A DNA stretch of 22,414 nt from a virus. The notes under the pieces are model-generated. The model saw only the letters and a list, made by a program, of their open reading frames with translations, was not told where the DNA came from and ran no database searches. Location of the stretch: IMG/VR virus record IMGVR_UViG_3300028277_000535, positions 1 through 22,414 of that record, one strand, 5' to 3'. Both the position numbers and the translations under genes were made by a program. Of the stretch, positions 5,513 through 19,468 are shown piece after piece (position 1 is the stretch's first letter; the number at the start of each line of letters is the position of its first letter).

Positions 5513-5900
5513 CTACAAAAAATCTCGTATAATAAACACCACCAGTACTACCATGATCCAATCCACTATAACTGCCAGTTATATTTGAATCTGGATTATT
5601 GATTACTTCCGAGTTTTCGATTTGAACCCTGTGAAAATCAGTAAACCATGATGCAGAAATATTTACATCTTCACAAACTCTGGTTAATAAAGAACCTGTT
5701 ATATGTATTTGATTGTACTCTGGTATTGAACTCCAATTCCAACTTGCACTTTCAACTAAACCCCAAACTATAATTTTATCATCATATTCATCTATTTCAC
5801 TCTGATTGTCTGTAATCCAATCATAATCTTCTGGATCTAATGAACCAGATATCACATCAACATTGGTTTGTACTGCAAATCTAATACTATAATAACTCAT
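5472..5900 (-). CDS. Hypothetical acidic protein following the 892-aa Hint protein
   Basis: A 142-aa protein I do not recognise. It is acidic in the first half (a run of Asp/Glu around residues 20-42) and rich in Ser, Asn, Trp and Tyr afterwards. It has alternating hydrophobic residues that suggest a beta-sandwich, for example IHITGSLLTRV and RVQIENSEVI. It ends in NNCTSTL. Its ATG overlaps the stop of the 892-aa protein in a TAATG junction, so it is co-translated with it. Possible roles include a chaperone or a binding partner for the LamG-like C-terminal domain encoded just upstream, or another small virion beta-protein. These are guesses from position only. Confidence 0.55.
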   Translation of the reverse strand: MSYYSIRFAVQTNVDVISGSLDPEDYDWITDNQSEIDEYDDKIIVWGLVESASWNWSSIPEYNQIHITGSLLTRVCEDVNISASWFTDFHRVQIENSEVINNPDSNITGSYSGLDHGSTGGVYYTRFFVDGVNIENNCTSTL

Positions 5901-8578
5901 TAAATTGTCCAGAAGAAATCGGGGTTTTGGGCTCCTGGAGTCATTCTGTTATAATACTTTAAAATACCTTCTGCCAATTCATTCTGATTTCCGGAGGGTT
6001 GTGCTTTACCTATAAATAAAGCTTCTGAAAAGACGCCTCCGAGGGTGTTTACGGTAGTGGTGCCAGTGGTAGATTTACCAAAAACACTCCAATAATTACT
6101 ACCTGCTCTTGGTTGGGTTATTGGGGAGGGCTCATATTGAGTCTGTCCAAACGCAGTGCCTCCTGGATTTGAAAAATTCCTGAAATTCCACCGTGTTGGG
6201 GTAGATGGAGCATTATATCTAACTCCTGTAATAATAAAAGCCGGCATAGGAATGTGCTTGGGGCCGGTTTCTTGATAAGTTGGTGATGGAGAGAAATCAA
6301 CTTGTGGTGGTGAAACAGCAGCCCAAGGTGGTTTGGAATAATACATTTTCCCTTGTGTAGGTTGAGAAAAATTATCCCTCACTGCAATATCCCAATCACT
6401 TCCAGGCTGACAGCTCCACAAACGGCCGTAGTTATTCGATTGACGAGCCGTATAGGCCCATGTCATTATAGTAGTAAATGAACTTGGACCAAAAAACCCA
6501 TAAGTACCAGTATGATATGGATTCGTGGGTTGTTTTGAAAAAACAAAACCTTTTGAACCAGGCATATTGATGCCTTTCATGGGATTTGTATTCCTGGAAA
6601 CGGGACTTCCACCTCCATCGGCATATTCTGCACTGTGCACTGCATACGATCCAGGTTGGACTATTGCATCTATATCTCCACGAGAGGTTAAATCATAAAT
6701 AGTATTAGAAGGACTTGGAAAACTTGAAGGATGACTCACATCCCAATGCCCATATATATCTAATTCACTACCAAATGATGGTGGAATAGGCCAATTTGAT
6801 GGACCATTATGAACGTGTAATCTATTCATAAAGTAATTCGGGTTGGGAGTATCCATTGGTTTCATTTCATAAATATCCCAATGTGATCTCTTACCCACTA
6901 CTTCTCTCATACTCACAACTACTGATGATACCATTTCACCATAAAGTACATCGGTTACTTTCATATCAGGTCTTTTGGGTGTAATACACTGCATACCAGG
7001 CATCAATTGCATGGCTTCCTGATGTTTAATTTCCATTGTTAAATCTGGTCTATATGAAGCCCAACCGAAAAATTTCTCTTTTGGTGCTCTTACTTTCATT
7101 CCTTCACGAGATGCTGCATATATAACTTTAAGTGGTTTTTCAAATAAAAATTCTGCTGTCCAAATATGTCCACCTGTATTAAAAGTAATCTCAACAACTC
7201 TACTTGGCATTTTTTCATCTTCAACTTTACCCATTACACCGGCTACAATTTTTTGTTCTTCATCACTCCAACTCATAGCTACCTGGCCGACCTTTGGTGA
7301 AAAAATCAAATCATCCAATCCTGAAATATTGTTACTTGATTGTGCTTTTACAAAAAATCCATTAACACTCATAACATTTTCTGTAGTTCGAATCATTTTT
7401 CCTTTAACAACACCTTTTACAAATTCAATTTGTTTAATTTCAAATTCTTCCATATTATCACGAAGAATTTTATCACCAACTTCCAAAAACCTTACAGGAA
7501 TATATTGAGAAAGGTGGCCTGCTTTTACAACATTAGTAGAATATGTGAATTTATATTCGTTGTTTATTAAAACATAATTTTTATTGATGTAAGAATCGAA
7601 TTCATCTATTTTAGTTATTTTACCACCTAATTTTAGATTATCTCTCCGTTCTAACAAATATGAATGTTTTTTAGAACCATCTGCTAATTCTACTTCATCT
7701 TTAAGCATACAGTTTGTAGGATCAATTTTATAAAATAACTTTTCATCACCCTTATCTTCGTGTTCCCAATACTTACAATATAAGTTGGGTGTTAAATCAT
7801 AAAATTGTTTTTTAAATATTATTCCATAGGATTTTACTTCTGTCTTTAATCCTGTATCTATATCTATACCGGCATCAATGAAATCTTCACAATAATCAAA
7901 ATCTTTTAAATGTGTAATAAAAGCTTTTTTAGTTTTAAATTTACGAATCTCAACACCTTGCTTTCTATCAACATTACTTTTCTTAAAAACATACCATTTA
8001 TTTTTTTCGAAACCATCGTTATTTTCAATAGTCTGATATTCTGGAGTCGGATAAACATTTAAATGTTGAATTAATTTTTTAGTTTTTAATTTATTCTCCG
8101 CAATTCGATCTATTTCACATTCTCTATTCCAACCCACTCTTAATATGAAATCTTCTTGACTATTATACTCAAACCCATCCCAAATATCATCTTGGTTAGA
8201 ACTATAATGTATATCAAATTTAATGTCTTTTTTACTTAATTCTTTACTTAATTTATCACGAAACGGATGTGAAGGAGTAATTGACTTCCATTTAGATTCA
8301 CATAAAAGAACAAGAGTTTTGTACTTCCAATGAGAACATAAATTTACAAGTGCACCAAAATCAAACCATTCAATCAAATCTTCATCTAATGCTGTATTTG
8401 TATTAATTTCTGTTACGTAACCAACATAATCTTTTGGTAATAAATCAACTGTATATAATACTGCTTCATTTTTCTTCAAACCTCTAACTTCATTGGCAAA
8501 GTAATTACCTAAAGCATTGGCACTCGAACCCAACATCATTTTATAGCTTAACTTATCAAATAAATTTGTATTTTCCAT
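5900..8578 (-). CDS. ATP-grasp-like / double Hint (intein-like) / LamG-like fusion protein
   Basis: An 892-aa multidomain protein. Residues 1-285 share an ATP-grasp-like pattern with two other proteins here: TEINTN at 56-61, FILRVGW at 144-150, WYVFKK at 195-200 followed by a QGVEI loop, and YCEDFI at 229-234. A Hint region runs from Cys290 (CMLKDEVELADGS) to His590-Asn591 (LHVHN). It contains an internal domain boundary near 410-417, where VNGFFVKA replaces a VHN end and NISGLDDLIFSP restarts the pattern, so it is probably two tandem Hint modules. Residues 592-892 resemble a LamG/concanavalin-like jellyroll: HPSSFPSPSNTIYDLTS at 616-632 and a final FSEALFIGKAQ strand. The residue after Asn591 is Gly, so C-terminal cleavage is likelier than splicing. 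The ribosome site is GGAG, 11 nt before ATG. Confidence 0.75.
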   Translation of the reverse strand: MENTNLFDKLSYKMMLGSSANALGNYFANEVRGLKKNEAVLYTVDLLPKDYVGYVTEINTNTALDEDLIEWFDFGALVNLCSHWKYKTLVLLCESKWKSITPSHPFRDKLSKELSKKDIKFDIHYSSNQDDIWDGFEYNSQEDFILRVGWNRECEIDRIAENKLKTKKLIQHLNVYPTPEYQTIENNDGFEKNKWYVFKKSNVDRKQGVEIRKFKTKKAFITHLKDFDYCEDFIDAGIDIDTGLKTEVKSYGIIFKKQFYDLTPNLYCKYWEHEDKGDEKLFYKIDPTNCMLKDEVELADGSKKHSYLLERRDNLKLGGKITKIDEFDSYINKNYVLINNEYKFTYSTNVVKAGHLSQYIPVRFLEVGDKILRDNMEEFEIKQIEFVKGVVKGKMIRTTENVMSVNGFFVKAQSSNNISGLDDLIFSPKVGQVAMSWSDEEQKIVAGVMGKVEDEKMPSRVVEITFNTGGHIWTAEFLFEKPLKVIYAASREGMKVRAPKEKFFGWASYRPDLTMEIKHQEAMQLMPGMQCITPKRPDMKVTDVLYGEMVSSVVVSMREVVGKRSHWDIYEMKPMDTPNPNYFMNRLHVHNGPSNWPIPPSFGSELDIYGHWDVSHPSSFPSPSNTIYDLTSRGDIDAIVQPGSYAVHSAEYADGGGSPVSRNTNPMKGINMPGSKGFVFSKQPTNPYHTGTYGFFGPSSFTTIMTWAYTARQSNNYGRLWSCQPGSDWDIAVRDNFSQPTQGKMYYSKPPWAAVSPPQVDFSPSPTYQETGPKHIPMPAFIITGVRYNAPSTPTRWNFRNFSNPGGTAFGQTQYEPSPITQPRAGSNYWSVFGKSTTGTTTVNTLGGVFSEALFIGKAQPSGNQNELAEGILKYYNRMTPGAQNPDFFWTI

Positions 8579-10712: not shown

Positions 10713-11613
10713 ACGCGGTCTGTTTTTCTTTATAAATCAAGAAGATACCGCCTGAAAGTAATCCCAAACCTAATAGTTGATATACTGATGGTGCCGTGTC
10801 TAAAAAGAAATAGGCGATTATTACTGCAAAGAATGAACCAAAACAAAGTTCACCAACTCCTGCGTTACTGGCTCCAATGTATTTAATTGCTGTCCAATAA
10901 CATAAGTATGCAATATAACTGGCCACTATAGCAATATAGAGAATTGCCAATAGATTATGAGTGGTTAGTTGTGAAATTGTAGTTGCTGGTGATTGTAATA
11001 ATGAAGTATAAACAAACACTTGTAGAAAATCGTAGAACACGATAGTAAGTGGTTTATATTTCTTCATTATAGATTGTCCTACTAACAAATATCCAACCCA
11101 TGCTGCAACTGCCACTACACATAACAATACACCAGATGTAGTCAATGCTTCAGTTGAAAATGTGGGCAGAAATTCAATTGCAAACAATGAACCAACCGTA
11201 CCCAACCCTACTGCTATTTTTCTCTTAGTACTGAACTTCTCTCCGTATAAATACACCGCGACGAGTGCCAATACAAATGGATAAAAGTAAAAAATACCAT
11301 AGATGACTGGAATATTAGGATCCAGATATTCCCAACCGAACCAATATGTAATCAAATGGACGGCAAGAAATGCACCATTGGTCAAAAATCGTTTTATATC
11401 TTGTTTTTCCACAAGAAACAGATTTTCACCAGTTCTATATTTTTGAAATAAGATGGTTACACCAAACAAAATAGTTGCTATCAAGAACCTTGTAGATAAC
11501 AAAGTAACTGGACCGGCACCTTCTGCAAAGATATAACTACCTGTAACTTCAAGACTTGACCATGCAAGAATTGAACCGAATAATATCATTATTCCTTTTG
11601 TAAAATTATTCAT
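10702..11613 (-). CDS. EamA/DMT-family transporter
   Basis: A 303-aa integral membrane protein with about ten hydrophobic helices, the standard size for drug/metabolite transporters. Two EamA repeats are visible: one from about residue 5 to 140 (GIMILFGSILAWSSLEVTGS at the start, YPFVLALVAVYLYGEKFS before the first repeat ends), and a second from about 155 to 295 (LLCVVAVAAWVGYLLVGQSI to LLGLGLLSGGIFLIYK). Family members export amino acids, nucleobases or sugars across the inner membrane. Its base composition is slightly less AT-rich than neighbouring hypotheticals, hinting at acquisition from a host. It overlaps the beta-barrel gene by 8 nt and the lipoate-ligase-like gene by 11 nt, so the three are likely co-translated. 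Confidence 0.85.
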   Translation of the reverse strand: MNNFTKGIMILFGSILAWSSLEVTGSYIFAEGAGPVTLLSTRFLIATILFGVTILFQKYRTGENLFLVEKQDIKRFLTNGAFLAVHLITYWFGWEYLDPNIPVIYGIFYFYPFVLALVAVYLYGEKFSTKRKIAVGLGTVGSLFAIEFLPTFSTEALTTSGVLLCVVAVAAWVGYLLVGQSIMKKYKPLTIVFYDFLQVFVYTSLLQSPATTISQLTTHNLLAILYIAIVASYIAYLCYWTAIKYIGASNAGVGELCFGSFFAVIIAYFFLDTAPSVYQLLGLGLLSGGIFLIYKEKQTAYDQ

Positions 11614-12457
11614 TTTTACTATCCCCTAACTTTAAAATACCGAGGTCGGCATTTATTTTAAATAACAAATCACCTTCATTACCAAACTCTACAGATAAGA
11701 AACTACCAGGATAATCTCCATCAAAAGTCCACATAACCCCATAAAGTGGTTTTGCTTCTTTATCAGGAAAACTCTCATATCCAGCGAGTAGATTGAACCC
11801 ATAAAGTCCAGGTTTAATGACTGCTCGGGCGAAATAATACTCATCACTCAAACTATACTCGGCGATATATTCTATCTTATCATTTAATCCACTAACATCA
11901 ATGGATTGTCTTTCTTGATTATCAACTGAAAGTGCTACGAATTGATTTGCTATTTCATATGATACACGAGCGGAAGCGTAATCACTCCATCTATTGTTTA
12001 GATTATCACCGAAATAAGTTTCAAGATAACCTTTTTCACCAAGTGCACCATATACACTAACACCTCGACCAAGAACTAATTCACCGACATCCCAACTGGT
12101 CTGATAAGTAAACATATCTCTACGAGTTAAATCGAGATAAGGTAAATTAGAACCAAACGGAACTAATTGTTGTCCAAATCCAATATTGAACTTACCACCA
12201 TTGGCGACACTATATGGTTTATAAAAGAGTTCTTCAATATAGATTTTCTCATCGTTCCAAGTGGGTCCCCAAAAAAAGGTTGCAAACCATTTTGAGTCAT
12301 CACTTTTTACATAAGAAAATAATATTGGTTTACTCCAAGAAACCGTATCTCCAACTTCGGCATATCCAATAACCGAATTTTTGACTGTGATTGATGATTG
12401 GGCTGATAACATTGAAACCATTCCAAGTATCATCAATAACCTTACTATTTTATGCAT
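11606..12457 (-). CDS. Outer-membrane beta-barrel (porin-like) protein with signal peptide
   Basis: A 283-aa protein that begins with a clear signal peptide: basic MHKIVR, hydrophobic LLMILGMVSML, and a likely cut after Ala19 in MLSA|QSS. The rest alternates polar and hydrophobic residues in strands of 8-12 with aromatic girdles, for example WFATFFWGPTW, FNIGFGQQLVPFG and VSVYGALGEKGYLETYFGD. These resemble phosphate-selective or other outer-membrane porins of Gram-negative bacteria, where a GFGQQxxPFG-like turn is common. About 10-14 strands seem possible. The C-terminus (LGILKLGDSKNE) lacks the usual terminal aromatic of barrel proteins, perhaps because the frame now overlaps the exporter gene. 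A secreted porin-like protein is rare on a phage genome. The specific substrate is unknown. Confidence 0.65.
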   Translation of the reverse strand: MHKIVRLLMILGMVSMLSAQSSITVKNSVIGYAEVGDTVSWSKPILFSYVKSDDSKWFATFFWGPTWNDEKIYIEELFYKPYSVANGGKFNIGFGQQLVPFGSNLPYLDLTRRDMFTYQTSWDVGELVLGRGVSVYGALGEKGYLETYFGDNLNNRWSDYASARVSYEIANQFVALSVDNQERQSIDVSGLNDKIEYIAEYSLSDEYYFARAVIKPGLYGFNLLAGYESFPDKEAKPLYGVMWTFDGDYPGSFLSVEFGNEGDLLFKINADLGILKLGDSKNE

Positions 12458-13655: not shown

Positions 13656-15266
13656 TTACCCACATAAACCCTTTGCTTGCCACCATGAAGTGCTGGTGCA
13701 CCCGTTTACTGTCCCCTTAGAGGTGGTATATGTCGGCGTATGGCCCCCATTCCCGCCGTGAAGTGAATAATAATCACAGCGCGGACTTGTATTGGGATAT
13801 GAGACTTCAGCATAAGTGGGATAACTTACCCATGTGATCCAGAGGCTACCGTTACACGCCGCATTATGTAGTATCACTCCATTCGCATAATAATAATCCT
13901 GGGGTTCAACATTAATTTCACTAATAGGAAACACCTGTGTTGAAGATGAAACAACCGAAATACTTGTTATTTCTAATTCTTGACCATCTTCGTCTGCCAA
14001 ATAATCTCCAATAGATAATTCTATTGATGGTTTAAATTTCCAAGTATTTTCGCTTCCACTTGTAAAAAGATTTGTAAATGTACCAAATTTCTTATCACCA
14101 TTTATTACGGTATATGAATCTGTGAATAAATCGGGCCATACATCAATAACCTCAACATTTGATTGGGATGGTATTGATAAACTTGAAGTTTCCCAAAGTT
14201 TCCAGAAATAATGACCACACTTGTTAGCGTACCCATCCGATTCATCGGGTAACCCACTAATATTACGAATTTTTAAGAACGACCCCGTAACTACATTTTC
14301 TATATTTGTATAACTGTTATCTGACATCAATACCTGACTTCCCGATATGGCACCCTTTCGTGTAATAGTAGTTGTCGTATAAGAACCCGAATCACCTGAT
14401 AAAATATAATGAGGTAAATGAGTTTGAAAAACATTCACATCCGCTGTAATTGGATTCCGTGGTTGTAAAAAAATATTTTCTTGTGGAGTCAACATCATAA
14501 TACCCCTCACCTCAGAATAATAAGCCCCATTATAATTCAAATCGGGTAGGATAAACTCCTCACAATAAGATTGAGAAAGTAAATAATTTTTATTATCATC
14601 CGTTATATCATAAAACTGAAAAGAATTCATAAGTAAAGTTTGATAATCTACTGTGGGGTCTTTAATAAGTACATCTGGAACACCAACACCATTAGAAAAT
14701 CCATCAGGTAAATCTGCCATTTTTCTTGGCATCAAAGATTCAATTCCAGATGAAGATGCGAAATTCCTAAATTCTCTTTTATCCGATGCTAAATAATCAA
14801 TAGGACTTGCAGAATCAAATCCAAATCGTAACACAAAAGTAGTATTAGGAACATCAAAATCTGGTACCGGAGTAGGATAGGAGGGCTGAACATAAATACT
14901 TGATGTAAACCCATCTATGTCCAAACTGGCTGTTATATCACCTACCAGCTCCAAAGGTGGCATAACAGTTCCTTCTTCATTTCGTGTAACCAAAACTATA
15001 GTGTCATAATTATTTGCTTTCCACCAAGTAACTGCACTATCTAAAAAATTAGTTTCAGGTGGAGTTTGAATATTCGTGTTAAGTTCTAATAACTTTAATG
15101 ATCCACTTGAAGGGACCCAATCATATCCGGCAATTACTCCATGATTATTACCCTTTCCTGTCCAATATTCAGGATTACTTCCTGTCAAAAAGGGGGCAGC
15201 AGCTTGCAAAGACTGAGTTGCAATAGAACTACTATAATTATTAAAATTAAAATAATTTAATTTCAT
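13656..15266 (-). CDS. ATP-grasp-like / Hint (intein-like) protein with Cys-containing tail
   Basis: A 536-aa protein. Residues 1-300 share the ATP-grasp-like pattern of the 892- and 284-aa proteins: LLELNTN at 59-65, NNYDTIVLV at 85-93, FVLRFGF at 144-150, GVPDVLIKD at 195-203 and YCEEFI at 234-239. A Hint domain follows (about 305-468). It starts AISGSQVLMSDNS with Ala306 where Cys is normal and ends in YYANGVILHN with the catalytic pair His467-Asn468. The next residue is Ala469. The usual block-B His is replaced by Asn399. This predicts C-terminal cleavage by Asn cyclisation but no splicing, freeing a 68-residue peptide with four Cys (471, 497, 523, 535) that is rich in Tyr, Trp, Ser and Gly. 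The start has a strong GGAGG site and an ATGA overlap with the GNAT gene. Confidence 0.75.
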   Translation of the reverse strand: MKLNYFNFNNYSSSIATQSLQAAAPFLTGSNPEYWTGKGNNHGVIAGYDWVPSSGSLKLLELNTNIQTPPETNFLDSAVTWWKANNYDTIVLVTRNEEGTVMPPLELVGDITASLDIDGFTSSIYVQPSYPTPVPDFDVPNTTFVLRFGFDSASPIDYLASDKREFRNFASSSGIESLMPRKMADLPDGFSNGVGVPDVLIKDPTVDYQTLLMNSFQFYDITDDNKNYLLSQSYCEEFILPDLNYNGAYYSEVRGIMMLTPQENIFLQPRNPITADVNVFQTHLPHYILSGDSGSYTTTTITRKGAISGSQVLMSDNSYTNIENVVTGSFLKIRNISGLPDESDGYANKCGHYFWKLWETSSLSIPSQSNVEVIDVWPDLFTDSYTVINGDKKFGTFTNLFTSGSENTWKFKPSIELSIGDYLADEDGQELEITSISVVSSSTQVFPISEINVEPQDYYYANGVILHNAACNGSLWITWVSYPTYAEVSYPNTSPRCDYYSLHGGNGGHTPTYTTSKGTVNGCTSTSWWQAKGLCG

Positions 15267-17199: not shown

Positions 17200-17888
17200 T
17201 TTATTTTTTCCTTATCATAATAAAAATTCTTATTGGCTGGTGGAATTGTATTAGAATCACCATTGTCTATTTGATATGCCAATCGTTGATTTGTAATATA
17301 AGCATTTAATAATCCCTTTCTGACTACTCGATGTGTCATATCAGAATCAACTGCTATTTTAGGGTATTTTAGATGTTCTAAAAATACTTTACAGGCCTTT
17401 TTATTAACCATAAAACATTGATTTCCAGGTTTGTATTCATATATAGAATAAAAATCATTTATTTTTTCTTTAATGACCAAATCTTCTGTGAGATAACCAA
17501 AATGAATCATATCCCAATCCTTTGGAATGTGTTTTATACATTCATTAAATTTTTCTTCAAAGTCATCTATAAAAACACAATCATCTTCAATTATAAGTAT
17601 ATTACCATAATCTTTATTTATATTTTTTTTATATATTTCAAGAAAGGTTTTATGTAAACCAACTAACCCAGGTGTCAATGATTTACCCAATTTAAATCCT
17701 GATCTTTTAGTCTCATAAAGTTCACCTAATAACTTTTCCTTTTTATAATTTATTTTTTTACCATCTATTGCAGGAAATCTTTCTGTTTTAGATAATAACG
17801 GAATTTTACTTAATTGATGTTCTATTTTTTTTCGTCTATCTTGACGATAATCTAAATTTATATAATAAGATTTATGAAATATATTCAT
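17196..17888 (-). CDS. Glycosyltransferase family 25 protein (copy B)
   Basis: A GT25-type glycosyltransferase (LPS biosynthesis family). Counting from the TTG at 17906, the hallmarks are YYINLDYRQDRR (14-25), FPAIDG (44-49), LTPGLVGLHKTFLEIY (77-92) and ILIIEDDCVF (103-112) with the acidic EDD metal motif. I prefer the ATG at 17888 (codon 7 of the longer frame) because the earlier codon is TTG inside the upstream gene and GAGG lies 12 bases ahead of the ATG. The product would be 230 aa. The family transfers galactose, glucose or heptose to lipo-oligosaccharide, or hydroxylysine sugars in collagen-like proteins. It sits beside a heptose-kinase-like gene and the ATP-grasp-like protein. Confidence 0.8.
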   Translation of the reverse strand: MNIFHKSYYINLDYRQDRRKKIEHQLSKIPLLSKTERFPAIDGKKINYKKEKLLGELYETKRSGFKLGKSLTPGLVGLHKTFLEIYKKNINKDYGNILIIEDDCVFIDDFEEKFNECIKHIPKDWDMIHFGYLTEDLVIKEKINDFYSIYEYKPGNQCFMVNKKACKVFLEHLKYPKIAVDSDMTHRVVRKGLLNAYITNQRLAYQIDNGDSNTIPPANKNFYYDKEKIK

Positions 17889-18726
17889 ACTCTTTTGAAT
17901 CCTCAAAATAACTTTTATACCTTGATTGTAACGATAAATCTAATCTATTTTCTATTTCAGTTTTAGTACTTAAATATTTATATTCTGGTGTAATAGTTGG
18001 TTGTAAATTCTCATAATCAGTTATATCAATAGATATATTTTTTCCACATAAATGATAAGTATTCAAATAATAATCTGATACTATATAATCTTCACAATAC
18101 TCGTCCACAAAAGCATCTTGATAATCTTCCTTGTCAAAAAGATAAATACCCTTTCCCGAATCAAGTTCGGTATCTTTCATAACAAAATCTGGTACACCAT
18201 TACCCTTTTCAGTTACATCCTCTAATCTTAATATTTGTTTTGGAAAATTAAGTTTATCTCCCAAATATTGTCTTACCCATCTTTTATTTGTAGATAAATG
18301 TTCAATAAATGCAAACTCACGATTAAATGTTTGTTGAAAATTGAAAATTGATGGATCATCAGAAAAATCCATATAAACAAAATCTCCGACATCTTCGTTC
18401 ACCGTTTCTATTTTTATCTCCTTTTCCATTAAATTATATAAACTTCTATCACACCCTACGTTCCAAAACACAAGTTTACTATAATTGTTATTTACTAAAA
18501 AATCTTGTAAAATGCTCAAATCAAGTTGAGTTTTAGAAGTTACGGTTGCGGCCGTATCTATTTCTAAAAAATACAATTTGCCATCCTTTGGTATTAAAGA
18601 AGTCTTAACTAAAATAAAATGATTAGACAACTCCATATATTCTTTCATATCTGATGAAATCGATTCGTGAAAAATATCAGATTGTTTTTTAATTATCGGA
18701 ATATAAATATTTAAATCAAAGTTCAT
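17872..18726 (-). CDS. Stand-alone ATP-grasp-like protein, relative of the two Hint proteins
   Basis: A protein of 284 aa from the ATG at 18726. An in-frame GTG at 18744 would add 6 residues, but only the ATG has a usable GGAG site. Residue numbers here are from the GTG. It matches the N-terminal part of the 536- and 892-aa Hint proteins: LIPKDGKLYFLEIDTA (50-65), NNNYSKLVFW (85-94), HLSTNKRWVRQYL (149-161), GVPDFVMKDTELDSGKGIYL (183-202) and YCEDYI (216-221). The Lys190 plus a glycine loop, followed by an acidic YCED hinge, fits an ATP-grasp nucleotide site, though I claim this from pattern only. It overlaps the two flanking GT25 genes, suggesting a joint role. Possible activity: ligation of an amino acid or peptide to a glycan or protein. 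Confidence 0.7.
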   Translation of the reverse strand: MNFDLNIYIPIIKKQSDIFHESISSDMKEYMELSNHFILVKTSLIPKDGKLYFLEIDTAATVTSKTQLDLSILQDFLVNNNYSKLVFWNVGCDRSLYNLMEKEIKIETVNEDVGDFVYMDFSDDPSIFNFQQTFNREFAFIEHLSTNKRWVRQYLGDKLNFPKQILRLEDVTEKGNGVPDFVMKDTELDSGKGIYLFDKEDYQDAFVDEYCEDYIVSDYYLNTYHLCGKNISIDITDYENLQPTITPEYKYLSTKTEIENRLDLSLQSRYKSYFEDSKEYEYIS

Positions 18727-19468
18727 CCCAAGCCCCATCTCCACATTGAAATGATTTATCCTTATACCAAGATTGTAATTCTGTTCTCTTTTGTATGAGA
18801 GAAAATGTTATCATTGATCTTGAACAAAAAGGATAAACATCTGCTATATCAATATTTTTTCTATTAATGTGTAAGTCAGCAGGAACGATGCCCTGCTCAC
18901 TTGATTTTTGTATTAGTTTAGTTGCTGCAGTTGGTGTTATAGTGTAACAATGTGCTCCAAGTAAACAATATTCCCTACAATAACACTCTTCACCCTTCTC
19001 AACTGTACAATCACACCACCTCTTATACAAACCTTTTCTATTCCTTTTTTTATGTATCAACTCGAAATCAAAATCATCTTGTTTATAATCCTTTTCCCAA
19101 GAAGGTTTCCCATAATTTATCACTCCATCAAAATCATAGTCTTTAAATTCATTGGTAAAAATTGCATCATGTTCTAAAACCATAATTTTTTGGTCTAATT
19201 TCACACAATGATTCCAAAGGTGAAAGTGACTAAAAAAACATCCGAGTATAGATTCTTTGTAACCTATATTCGTCCAAAGACGGTTTTCATCGATAAAATT
19301 AAACTTATATTTTTTATTCAATTTTAGAGAATCGTCTCTATGTATACCTTCCCACAATTCAACATCTATTTTTCCAATATTTTTTGCTGAATCAATTGTC
19401 TTTAATGCAGATTCATAACTAAGTTTATTTGATGAAATATGAATTACATATTTTTTAAAATCCGACAT
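18716..19468 (-). CDS. Glycosyltransferase family 25-like protein (copy A)
   Basis: A 250-aa GT25-like glycosyltransferase, more divergent than the copy at 17196. ESILGCFFSHFHLWNHC (72-88) corresponds to the GxxxSH...W helix of the family and KIMVLEHDAIF (94-104) to the acidic metal strand, with EHD in place of EDD. LLGAHCYTITPTAATKLI (169-186) matches the tyrosine-containing strand and helix. A cluster of six cysteines (152, 154, 162, 164, 168, 174) is unusual and could bind zinc or be disulfide-bonded. It overlaps the methyltransferase upstream by 14 nt and the ATP-grasp-like gene downstream. The donor and acceptor are unknown; LPS or phage glycoprotein decoration is a reasonable inference. 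Confidence 0.75.
   Translation of the reverse strand: MSDFKKYVIHISSNKLSYESALKTIDSAKNIGKIDVELWEGIHRDDSLKLNKKYKFNFIDENRLWTNIGYKESILGCFFSHFHLWNHCVKLDQKIMVLEHDAIFTNEFKDYDFDGVINYGKPSWEKDYKQDDFDFELIHKKRNRKGLYKRWCDCTVEKGEECYCREYCLLGAHCYTITPTAATKLIQKSSEQGIVPADLHINRKNIDIADVYPFCSRSMITFSLIQKRTELQSWYKDKSFQCGDGAWDEL

What the first reader, a model, noticed from the sequence alone, without database searches (positions are those of the whole stretch)
13656..15266. Hint domain with Ala in place of Cys1 that should only cleave at its C-terminus, freeing a four-Cys peptide
The Hint region of the 536-aa protein starts with AISGSQVLM (Ala306) and lacks the block-B His, yet keeps the His467-Asn468 end followed by Ala469. 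Known Hint chemistry predicts loss of N-S shift and splicing but retention of Asn cyclisation. The freed 68-residue tail has four Cys and many Tyr, Trp, Ser and Gly. Genes next to it encode a GNAT and a glutaredoxin-sulfotransferase, possible modifiers of the tail (Tyr sulfation, disulfide handling).
Basis: partly seen in the sequence, partly recalled or inferred. Interest (0 to 1): 0.75.

Follow-up and report, generated by a model that had tools for sequence, protein, structure and literature searches.

The report
Phage Hint protein with swapped tails
A marine phage gene encodes a protein whose built-in, intein-like self-cutting domain has kept only the residues needed to cut off its own tail, and the tail behind the predicted cut has been swapped between related phages, which suggests (but does not prove) that the protein delivers an exchangeable small peptide.

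Summary
The Hint domain is real (minus strand, aa 305-468): a phage-Hint profile scores it 59 bits against at most 5.9 for 240 shuffled decoys, and an AlphaFold model matches bacterial intein-like (BIL) domains at Z 17. The Cys1 position is most likely Gly305, not Ala306; block-B His is Asn399. His467-Asn468 followed by Ala/Val is kept in 4 of 4 relatives reaching it. Remote relatives L147-L149 also lack Cys1 and block-B His; two keep His-Asn, one has Tyr-Asn. All 17 other readable phage Hints with non-nucleophilic +1 keep both. "C-terminal cleavage only" thus fits the family, but cleavage is untested, and block-B His loss lowers C-cleavage in class 2 inteins (PMC4031507).

New: nucleotide divergence jumps within about three codons of the scissile Asn (LRT 143-177; 10 controls 2.7-37), so the four-Cys tail is a recombined cassette. 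Remote relatives carry other tails (S74 chaperone; 12-mer plus canonical Hint). Of the neighbours only glutaredoxin is constant (3 of 3). Best reading: a BIL-like carrier releasing an exchangeable payload.

The parts
13656..15266 (-). 536-aa gene: N-terminal domain + Hint + 68-aa tail (stop codon 13656-13658)
   Evidence: 81-87% identical relatives in 3 other contigs
14367..15266 (-). aa 1-300: N-terminal domain shared with two other window genes; weak fold match to eukaryotic-type glutathione synthetases (ATP-grasp)
   Evidence: HMM of the family; Foldseek PDB rows 37, 39, 43 (E 2e-4 to 5e-4); alignment A6 invariants E, T, K
13863..14354 (-). aa 305-468: Hint domain, BIL-like; Gly305 in the Cys1 position, N399 in place of block-B His, D457 at block F, H467-N468 at the end
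13863..13868 (-). His467-Asn468, predicted Asn-cyclisation and cleavage site
   Evidence: sequence; conserved 4 of 4; also L148 and L149
13659..13862 (-). aa 469-536: exchangeable tail with four conserved Cys (471, 497, 523, 535)
   Evidence: 42-53% aa identity against 86% in Hint; saturated synonymous sites; change-point 471.0-472.3 in window-L004
15263..15691 (-). GNAT acetyltransferase, next gene upstream
   Evidence: PF00583; also L003, absent in L004
12487..13635 (-). glutaredoxin-sulfotransferase, next gene downstream
   Evidence: PF00462, PF00685; L004 keeps the glutaredoxin half only
5900..8578 (-). 892-aa paralogue: same N-terminal domain + diverged Hint-like region (Cys290 ... VHN591|GPSNW) + variable C-terminal 300 aa
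   Evidence: N-terminal HMM; Hint profile 12.2 bits (L013 14.1) against decoy maximum 5.9; L013 80% identical
17872..18744 (-). 290-aa stand-alone copy of the N-terminal domain, no Hint

Best explanation
The 536-aa protein is a phage-encoded, BIL-like carrier. Its Hint domain has lost the N-terminal half of the chemistry (no Cys/Ser at position 1, no block-B His) and kept the C-terminal half (His467-Asn468). It most likely cuts itself once: Asn468 cyclises, the Asn468-Ala469 bond breaks, and a 68-residue peptide with four Cys is released while the N-terminal domain stays joined to the spent Hint. The payload is exchanged between phages by recombination just behind the cut site, as in C-terminal swapping of polymorphic toxins. 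Shown here: Hint fold (predicted), missing and kept residues, their conservation, the recombination border. Inferred: that cleavage happens, that the released peptide is functional, and that neighbouring glutaredoxin and transferases act on it.
For: Hint fold and profile. Joint loss of Cys1 and block-B His in the 536 clade and in L147, L148 and L149 Hint1, while a terminal Asn is kept in all four and His-Asn in three. By contrast all 17 other readable phage Hints with non-nucleophilic +1 keep both Cys1 and a block-B His (23 such rows among the 119, 5 of them cut off by the locus end, 1 belonging to the 536 clade). Purifying selection on the Hint (dN/dS about 0.2-0.3) and on the tail (dN 0.5-0.6 with saturated dS). 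Divergence border: best change at residue 472 in window-L004 (2-lnL interval 471.0-472.3), interval 465.7-472.3 in window-L003, 466.0-473.0 in L003-L004; whole-gene LRT 176.5 and 142.7 against 2.7-37.4 in 10 control gene comparisons from the same loci. Remote relatives carry unrelated modules behind the same His-Asn: S74-type chaperone in L148, 12-mer plus canonical Hint in L149.
Against: No cleavage has been observed. Block-B His loss drastically reduces C-terminal cleavage in class 2 inteins (PMC4031507). Block F carries Asp457 where inteins mostly have His. In the 892-aa paralogue the variable part starts about 50 residues behind its His-Asn, not at it. The clade L136/L139/L141/L143/L146 has Glu-Asn or Ser-Asn, once followed by Pro, with a tail of about 60 aa. 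L147, L148 and L149 may share one ancestral loss with the 536 clade, so they need not be independent events. His-Asn conservation among relatives of 81-87% identity is weak evidence by itself. The AlphaFold tail is unstructured (pLDDT below 50).
Confidence: 0.5

Rival explanations
1. The Hint is a worn-out, inert scaffold. The protein stays whole and its variable tail is a tip or adhesin (for example on the virion or cell surface) that varies like other phage receptor-binding tips.
For: Several members have lost His-Asn or Cys1 in different combinations; L148 ends in an S74-type chaperone domain otherwise found on tail fibres (Pfam E 6.5e-4, just under its cut-off; phrog_6121 'virion structural protein' 3.2e-12); Hints close in sequence (L053, L124) sit in proteins amid baseplate/tail-like genes (by eye, L053 only); Yoloswag gp103, a collagen-like 'virion structural protein', carries one.
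Against: Hint under purifying selection with the end motif intact in the 536 clade; the swap border lies at the predicted cut, not at a loop or stalk; no structural gene recognised next to the 536 gene in the window.
Confidence: 0.28
2. The protein is a peptide-modification precursor: N-terminal glutathione-synthetase/ATP-grasp-like domain, Hint and core peptide together with tailoring enzymes nearby form a RiPP-like phage pathway.
For: Neighbours across the family: radical SAM, 2OG oxygenases, sulfotransferases, GNATs, a Trp halogenase three genes upstream in L148 (PF04820, 1.1e-97), an MFS or EamA transporter; a radical SAM gene follows directly in 5 of 5 members of the Cys-keeping clade by inspection (Pfam run on one).
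Against: Such enzymes are common in this part of marine T4-like genomes in general (recalled) and no background rate was computed; neighbours change from locus to locus; the ATP-grasp match is weak.
Confidence: 0.15
3. The Hint still acts at its N-terminal side or splices by an unusual route (class 2 or class 3).
For: Class 2 inteins also lack Cys1 and still splice (PMC4031507; PMC7664689); the family profile A6 has the class 2 KlbA intein 2jmz as its top PDB row, E 0.0017.
Against: +1 is Ala or Val, so no class 2 nucleophile; no Cys in block F, so no class 3; block-B His, required in class 2, is absent (sequence).
Confidence: 0.05

Closest known systems
Type A bacterial intein-like (BIL) domains (incl. 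C. thermocellum BIL; Tetrahymena BUBL BIL2)
   Same: Best structural matches (Z 17.0 and 16.9); terminal His-Asn, non-nucleophilic +1, sit between independent domains
   Different: Type A BILs are proposed to form a thioester at their N-terminus (PMC4031507); here position 1 is Gly/Ala and block-B His is Asn, so only the Asn step can remain
HINT domains of polymorphic toxins (e.g. MafB, PT-HINT)
   Same: Conserved carrier, Hint, then an exchangeable C-terminal payload; autoproteolysis of a HINT domain reported for MafB (PMC9263626, passage read)
   Different: Phage gene, no immunity gene recognised next to it, no secretion domain recognised, small four-Cys tail without known toxin match; Pfam PT-HINT not hit by the window protein
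Phage virion proteins with C-terminal Hint (Erwinia phage Yoloswag gp103 / phrog_38766; L053, L124, L069, L113)
   Same: Homologous Hint domain (phrog_38766 E 1.2e-4 to 6.4e-3; profile)
   Different: They keep Cys1 and block-B His, and end 2-35 residues behind His-Asn
Class 2 inteins (M. jannaschii KlbA)
   Same: No Cys/Ser at position 1
   Different: Class 2 need Cys+1 and block-B His and have Ser before Asn (PMC4031507); here Ala+1, no block-B His, His before Asn

Membership tests
Hint (hedgehog/intein) superfamily | Hint fold | tested here: met
   Predicted model, pLDDT mostly 70-92 over the domain (41-60 in two short stretches); VIA Z up to 17.0, Foldseek E 5e-9
Type A BIL | Terminal His-Asn and non-nucleophilic +1 | tested here: met
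   HN468|A/V, 4 of 4
Type A BIL | N-terminal Cys/Ser for the thioester | tested here: not met
   G305-A306 in 5 of 5 loci reaching it
Type A BIL | Cleavage or ligation activity | not testable with these tools
   needs expression
Class 1 intein | Cys/Ser at 1, Cys/Ser/Thr at +1 | tested here: not met
   Gly/Ala at 1; Ala/Val at +1
Class 2 intein | Ala1 with Cys+1 and block-B His | tested here: not met
   no Cys at +1, N399 instead of His
Class 3 intein | Cys in block F (WCT motif) | tested here: not met
   block F reads ...ISEINVEPQDYYYANG..., no Cys
Polymorphic toxin with HINT | Conserved front, swapped C-terminal module | tested here: met
   change-point behind Asn468
Polymorphic toxin with HINT | Toxin domain and immunity gene | tested here: inconclusive
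   no Pfam, PHROG or convincing PDB match for the tail; neighbours are GNAT and Grx-ST
Eukaryotic-type glutathione synthetase / ATP-grasp | ATP-grasp fold of the N-terminal domain | tested here: inconclusive
   Foldseek rows at E 2e-4 to 1.3e-3 but TM 0.18-0.28 and rmsd 11-16; no Pfam hit
RiPP precursor | Core peptide modified by cluster enzymes | not tested
   only neighbourhood

The most novel reading that the evidence does not exclude
Uncultured marine T4-like phages use a dedicated family (glutathione-synthetase-like domain + Hint) as carriers for exchangeable peptides. In the 536 clade a C-only Hint frees a four-Cys peptide. In L149 a Cys1-less Hint (HN463|) is followed by 12 residues and then a canonical Cys1 Hint (C476 ... 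HN-K), so the first would free the N-terminus of the 12-mer and the second would make a thioester at its C-terminus. Aminolysis, as proposed for type A BILs, would then close the 12-mer into a ring: a natural counterpart of the laboratory intein cyclisation scheme. Nearby halogenase, sulfotransferase, radical SAM and oxygenase genes would be the tailoring enzymes.
Probability: 0.12. Interest if true: 0.88.

Novelty: new variant of a known kind. Interest (0 to 1): 0.6.

Why it matters
If cleavage is confirmed, this would be a Hint domain that evolution has pared down to C-terminal cleavage, used by phages to deliver interchangeable peptides. It would be a self-contained release module and a testable candidate substrate for phage-encoded transferases, oxygenases and halogenases. 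No member with the N-terminal domain was found in 50,697 phage records (without a match; searches matched only the second Hint of L149 and the S74 tail of L148) or, at the sensitivity of one pattern scan, in 84,980 bacterial and archaeal genomes (46 pattern matches, none a relative).

Tried and rejected
The first AlphaFold job with four close relatives gave a useless model (pLDDT 25); a 31-row alignment of window and locus proteins worked for the N-terminal and Hint parts. Pfam, PHROG and PDB sequence searches for the tail alone found nothing convincing (best PDB row E 0.053); the last viral scan with the tail found only the two known loci (20 pattern matches, 2 relatives). The idea that the 892-aa C-terminus is a LamG/concanavalin-like lectin came from reading the sequence and got no profile support, so it is not claimed. 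A host search through the porin-like gene found nothing. A glutathione-synthetase/ATP-grasp identity for the N-terminal domain is only weakly supported (the sequence profile A6 hit Hint structures, not ATP-grasp). The Hint assignment of the L136 clade is uncertain: L141 scores 14.3 bits, L139 7.9, L143 7.9, L146 7.1, L136 5.2, against a best decoy of 5.9. Splicing (class 1, 2, 3) was rejected on residues. Literature searches listed no paper on this family; the three terms 'ATP-grasp', 'Hint domain', 'phage' together are in 0 of the 5.39 million held papers. The link of the 536 clade to L012 (first 47 aa joined to another gene's end) may be a deletion or a mis-assembly and was not resolved. No background rate for tailoring enzymes near the gene was computed.

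Papers: PMC4031507, PMC7664689, PMC3556154, PMC5259590, PMC9263626, PMC10452541 and PMC9200820 were seen as passages returned by term look-ups only; all others only as search listings. That intein-based peptide cyclisation in the laboratory and 'fractured genes' with split inteins exist is recalled, not looked up; so are the intein block names applied to the window protein, the 'T4-like' label of these phages and the remark that tailoring-type genes are common in them.

Full report
What was checked. The ORF 13656-15266 lies on the minus strand and encodes 536 aa. It lies in a 22.4-kb record classed as virus. Genes around it include two ClpP-like proteins (by eye), a radical SAM protein, two GT25 glycosyltransferases, three 2OG-oxygenase genes, two GNATs, a Grx-sulfotransferase, a SET-like protein and an EamA transporter.

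Is there a Hint domain? Pfam gives nothing on the window protein. PHROG 38766 matches at E 6e-3 to 1e-4; I infer from length and name that Erwinia phage Yoloswag gp103, whose C-terminus reads as a canonical Hint, belongs to it. A PDB profile search hits Tetrahymena BIL2 at E 9e-4 over residues 420-469. A second AlphaFold job on a 31-row alignment gave pLDDT mostly 70-92 in the domain (overall 68.5), and the top matches are BIL domains: 6y75 Z 17.0, 2lwy Z 16.9, with splicing inteins and hedgehog following. The fold model used Hint rows in its alignment, so the two lines are not fully independent.

Which catalytic residues are present? Position 1 is most likely Gly305 (ungapped C-x4-T against G305-A-I-S-G-S310; VIA rows starting at intein residue 1 start at model residue 305), with Ala306 as the alternative (2lwy; gapped alignment). 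Block-B Thr is kept (T396) and His is replaced by Asn399. Block F carries Asp457 in place of the usual His, as do L053, L124, Yoloswag, L147, L148 and L149 (read). The end is His467-Asn468 followed by Ala469 (Val in L003 and L005).

Is it conserved? Close relatives are in three further contigs that cover the Hint end (L003 86%, L004 81%, L005 87%) and one that reaches residue 327 (L006). Gly-Ala is kept in 5 of 5 and His-Asn in 4 of 4, counting the window. A scan with an alignment that included a remote relative (L136) gave 17 loci from 345 pattern matches. Members with the same N-terminal domain show: L148, no Cys1 or block-B His, His-Asn, then Lys and an S74-type chaperone; L149, no Cys1 (Gly), no block-B His, His-Asn, Tyr, and after 12 residues a canonical Hint that passes the Pfam Hint_2 cut-off and ends in His-Asn-Lys; L147, no Cys1, Tyr-Asn and a three-residue end; L136, L139, L141, L143 and L146, a Cys one residue off the canonical spacing, no block-B His, Glu-Asn or Ser-Asn; L142, L144 and L145, N-terminal domain only (L142 with MORN repeats). 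In the window itself the 892-aa protein has Cys290, no block-B His and VHN591|GPSNW, and the 290-aa ORF has no Hint. By comparison, of 23 viral Hints with a non-nucleophilic +1 listed, 17 show both Cys1 and a block-B His, 5 are cut off by the end of the locus, and 1 belongs to the 536 clade. So loss of both N-terminal residues with retention of the Asn end is, in this sample, peculiar to this family. Whether they were lost once or several times is open. The Hint assignment is firm for the 536 clade, fair for L149 Hint1, L147, L148, L141 and the 892 pair (10.6-16.8 bits, above all 240 decoys) and weak for L136, L139, L143 and L146 (5.2-7.9 bits).

Between relatives the N-terminal part and the Hint differ at 7-11% of nucleotides and the tail at 45-49%. 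Synonymous divergence goes from dS 0.09-0.37 to about 1.5 or saturation. The likelihood change-point lies at residue 472 for window-L004 (2-lnL interval 471.0-472.3), with intervals of 465.7-472.3 and 466.0-473.0 for the other pairs (all codon positions, residues 301 onward). Third positions alone give wider intervals (457.7-483.7, 470.7-473.7, 459.7-473.7). Whole-gene LRTs are 176.5 (change at 469.3) and 142.7 (472.0); 10 comparisons of six other shared genes give 2.7 to 37.4. The gene downstream is similar again. The tail is therefore a recombined cassette whose border sits at the predicted cut. It is still coding under constraint: dN is about 0.5-0.6 with saturated dS, and 25 columns including the four Cys (and Asn468 itself) are invariant in 3 of 3 complete tails. 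In the 892-aa paralogue divergence rises only about 50 residues behind its His-Asn, which does not fit the same rule.

Mechanism. Established chemistry (PMC4031507, PMC7664689, passages): without a position-1 nucleophile there is no N-S shift; without a +1 nucleophile there is no branched intermediate; Asn cyclisation can occur ahead of the other steps. BILs of type A are proposed to do the N-terminal thioester step and the Asn step; here only the second can remain. Against ready cleavage stands the report that block-B His and Asp F:4 mutations in class 2 inteins drastically lower C-terminal cleavage too, while His at F:13 and G:6 is dispensable in some inteins (PMC4031507). I put cleavage of this protein at about one in two.

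Partners. Glutaredoxin is the next gene in 3 of 3 complete loci (window, L003, L004). The sulfotransferase half is present in 2 of 3; L004 has instead a Sulfotransfer_2 gene directly upstream. The GNAT is in window and L003 (2 of 3), and also in front of the truncated copies in L010 and L012. In remote loci direct or near neighbours include 2OG oxygenases (L147, L149), a Trp halogenase three genes upstream in L148, and radical SAM directly behind the gene in the five Cys-keeping members. These genes are common in such phages (recalled), so the link to the tail is a hypothesis.

Verdict. A real variant of the BIL/Hint kind, for which the literature searches made here listed no description, embedded in a phage protein family with exchangeable tails. 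The cassette border is the strongest new support. Function of the payload remains unknown; my preferred guess is a small released effector or ligand, with an intact adhesin as the main rival.

Noticed in passing
L149:9128-11047: Tandem Hints: a Cys1-less Hint ending HN463, the 12-mer YMGAGRWFPYTT, then a canonical Hint from C476 to HN-K at the end; layout suited to peptide cyclisation.
   Followed up: partly
window 5900-8578 (-); L013:6720-9419: 892-aa paralogue with a diverged, enlarged Hint-like region that is nearly identical between the two phages (aa 401-600) and a strongly diverging C-terminal 250 aa.
   Followed up: partly
L148:5332-6594: Phage-borne tryptophan halogenase (PF04820, 1.1e-97) three genes upstream of the Hint-S74 gene.
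   Followed up: no
L007:633-2917 (also L010, L011, L093): Clamp-loader gene broken into two ORFs, each carrying half of an intein-like Hint (block A half and THN|C half), with an endonuclease-like ORF between: looks like a fractured gene with a split intein.
   Followed up: no
L012:801-1163: First 47 aa of the 536-type gene joined in frame to the end of the LplA-like gene; deletion of the module between or mis-assembly.
   Followed up: no
window 11606-12457 (-): Porin-like protein (by eye) with a signal-like start ending in SAQ next to an EamA transporter, present in several of these phages; no relative found in the bacterial genome scan.
   Followed up: partly
L141:11608-14516 and equivalents in L136, L139, L143, L146: Constant run behind the Cys-keeping Hint gene: radical SAM, a QueC-like ORF (by eye, no Pfam hit), an MFS permease; a PIG-L deacetylase in front.
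   Followed up: no
L145:13403-14788: 461-aa ORF with a similar LYEFNTN motif, no Pfam or PHROG hit; perhaps another relative of the N-terminal domain.
   Followed up: no
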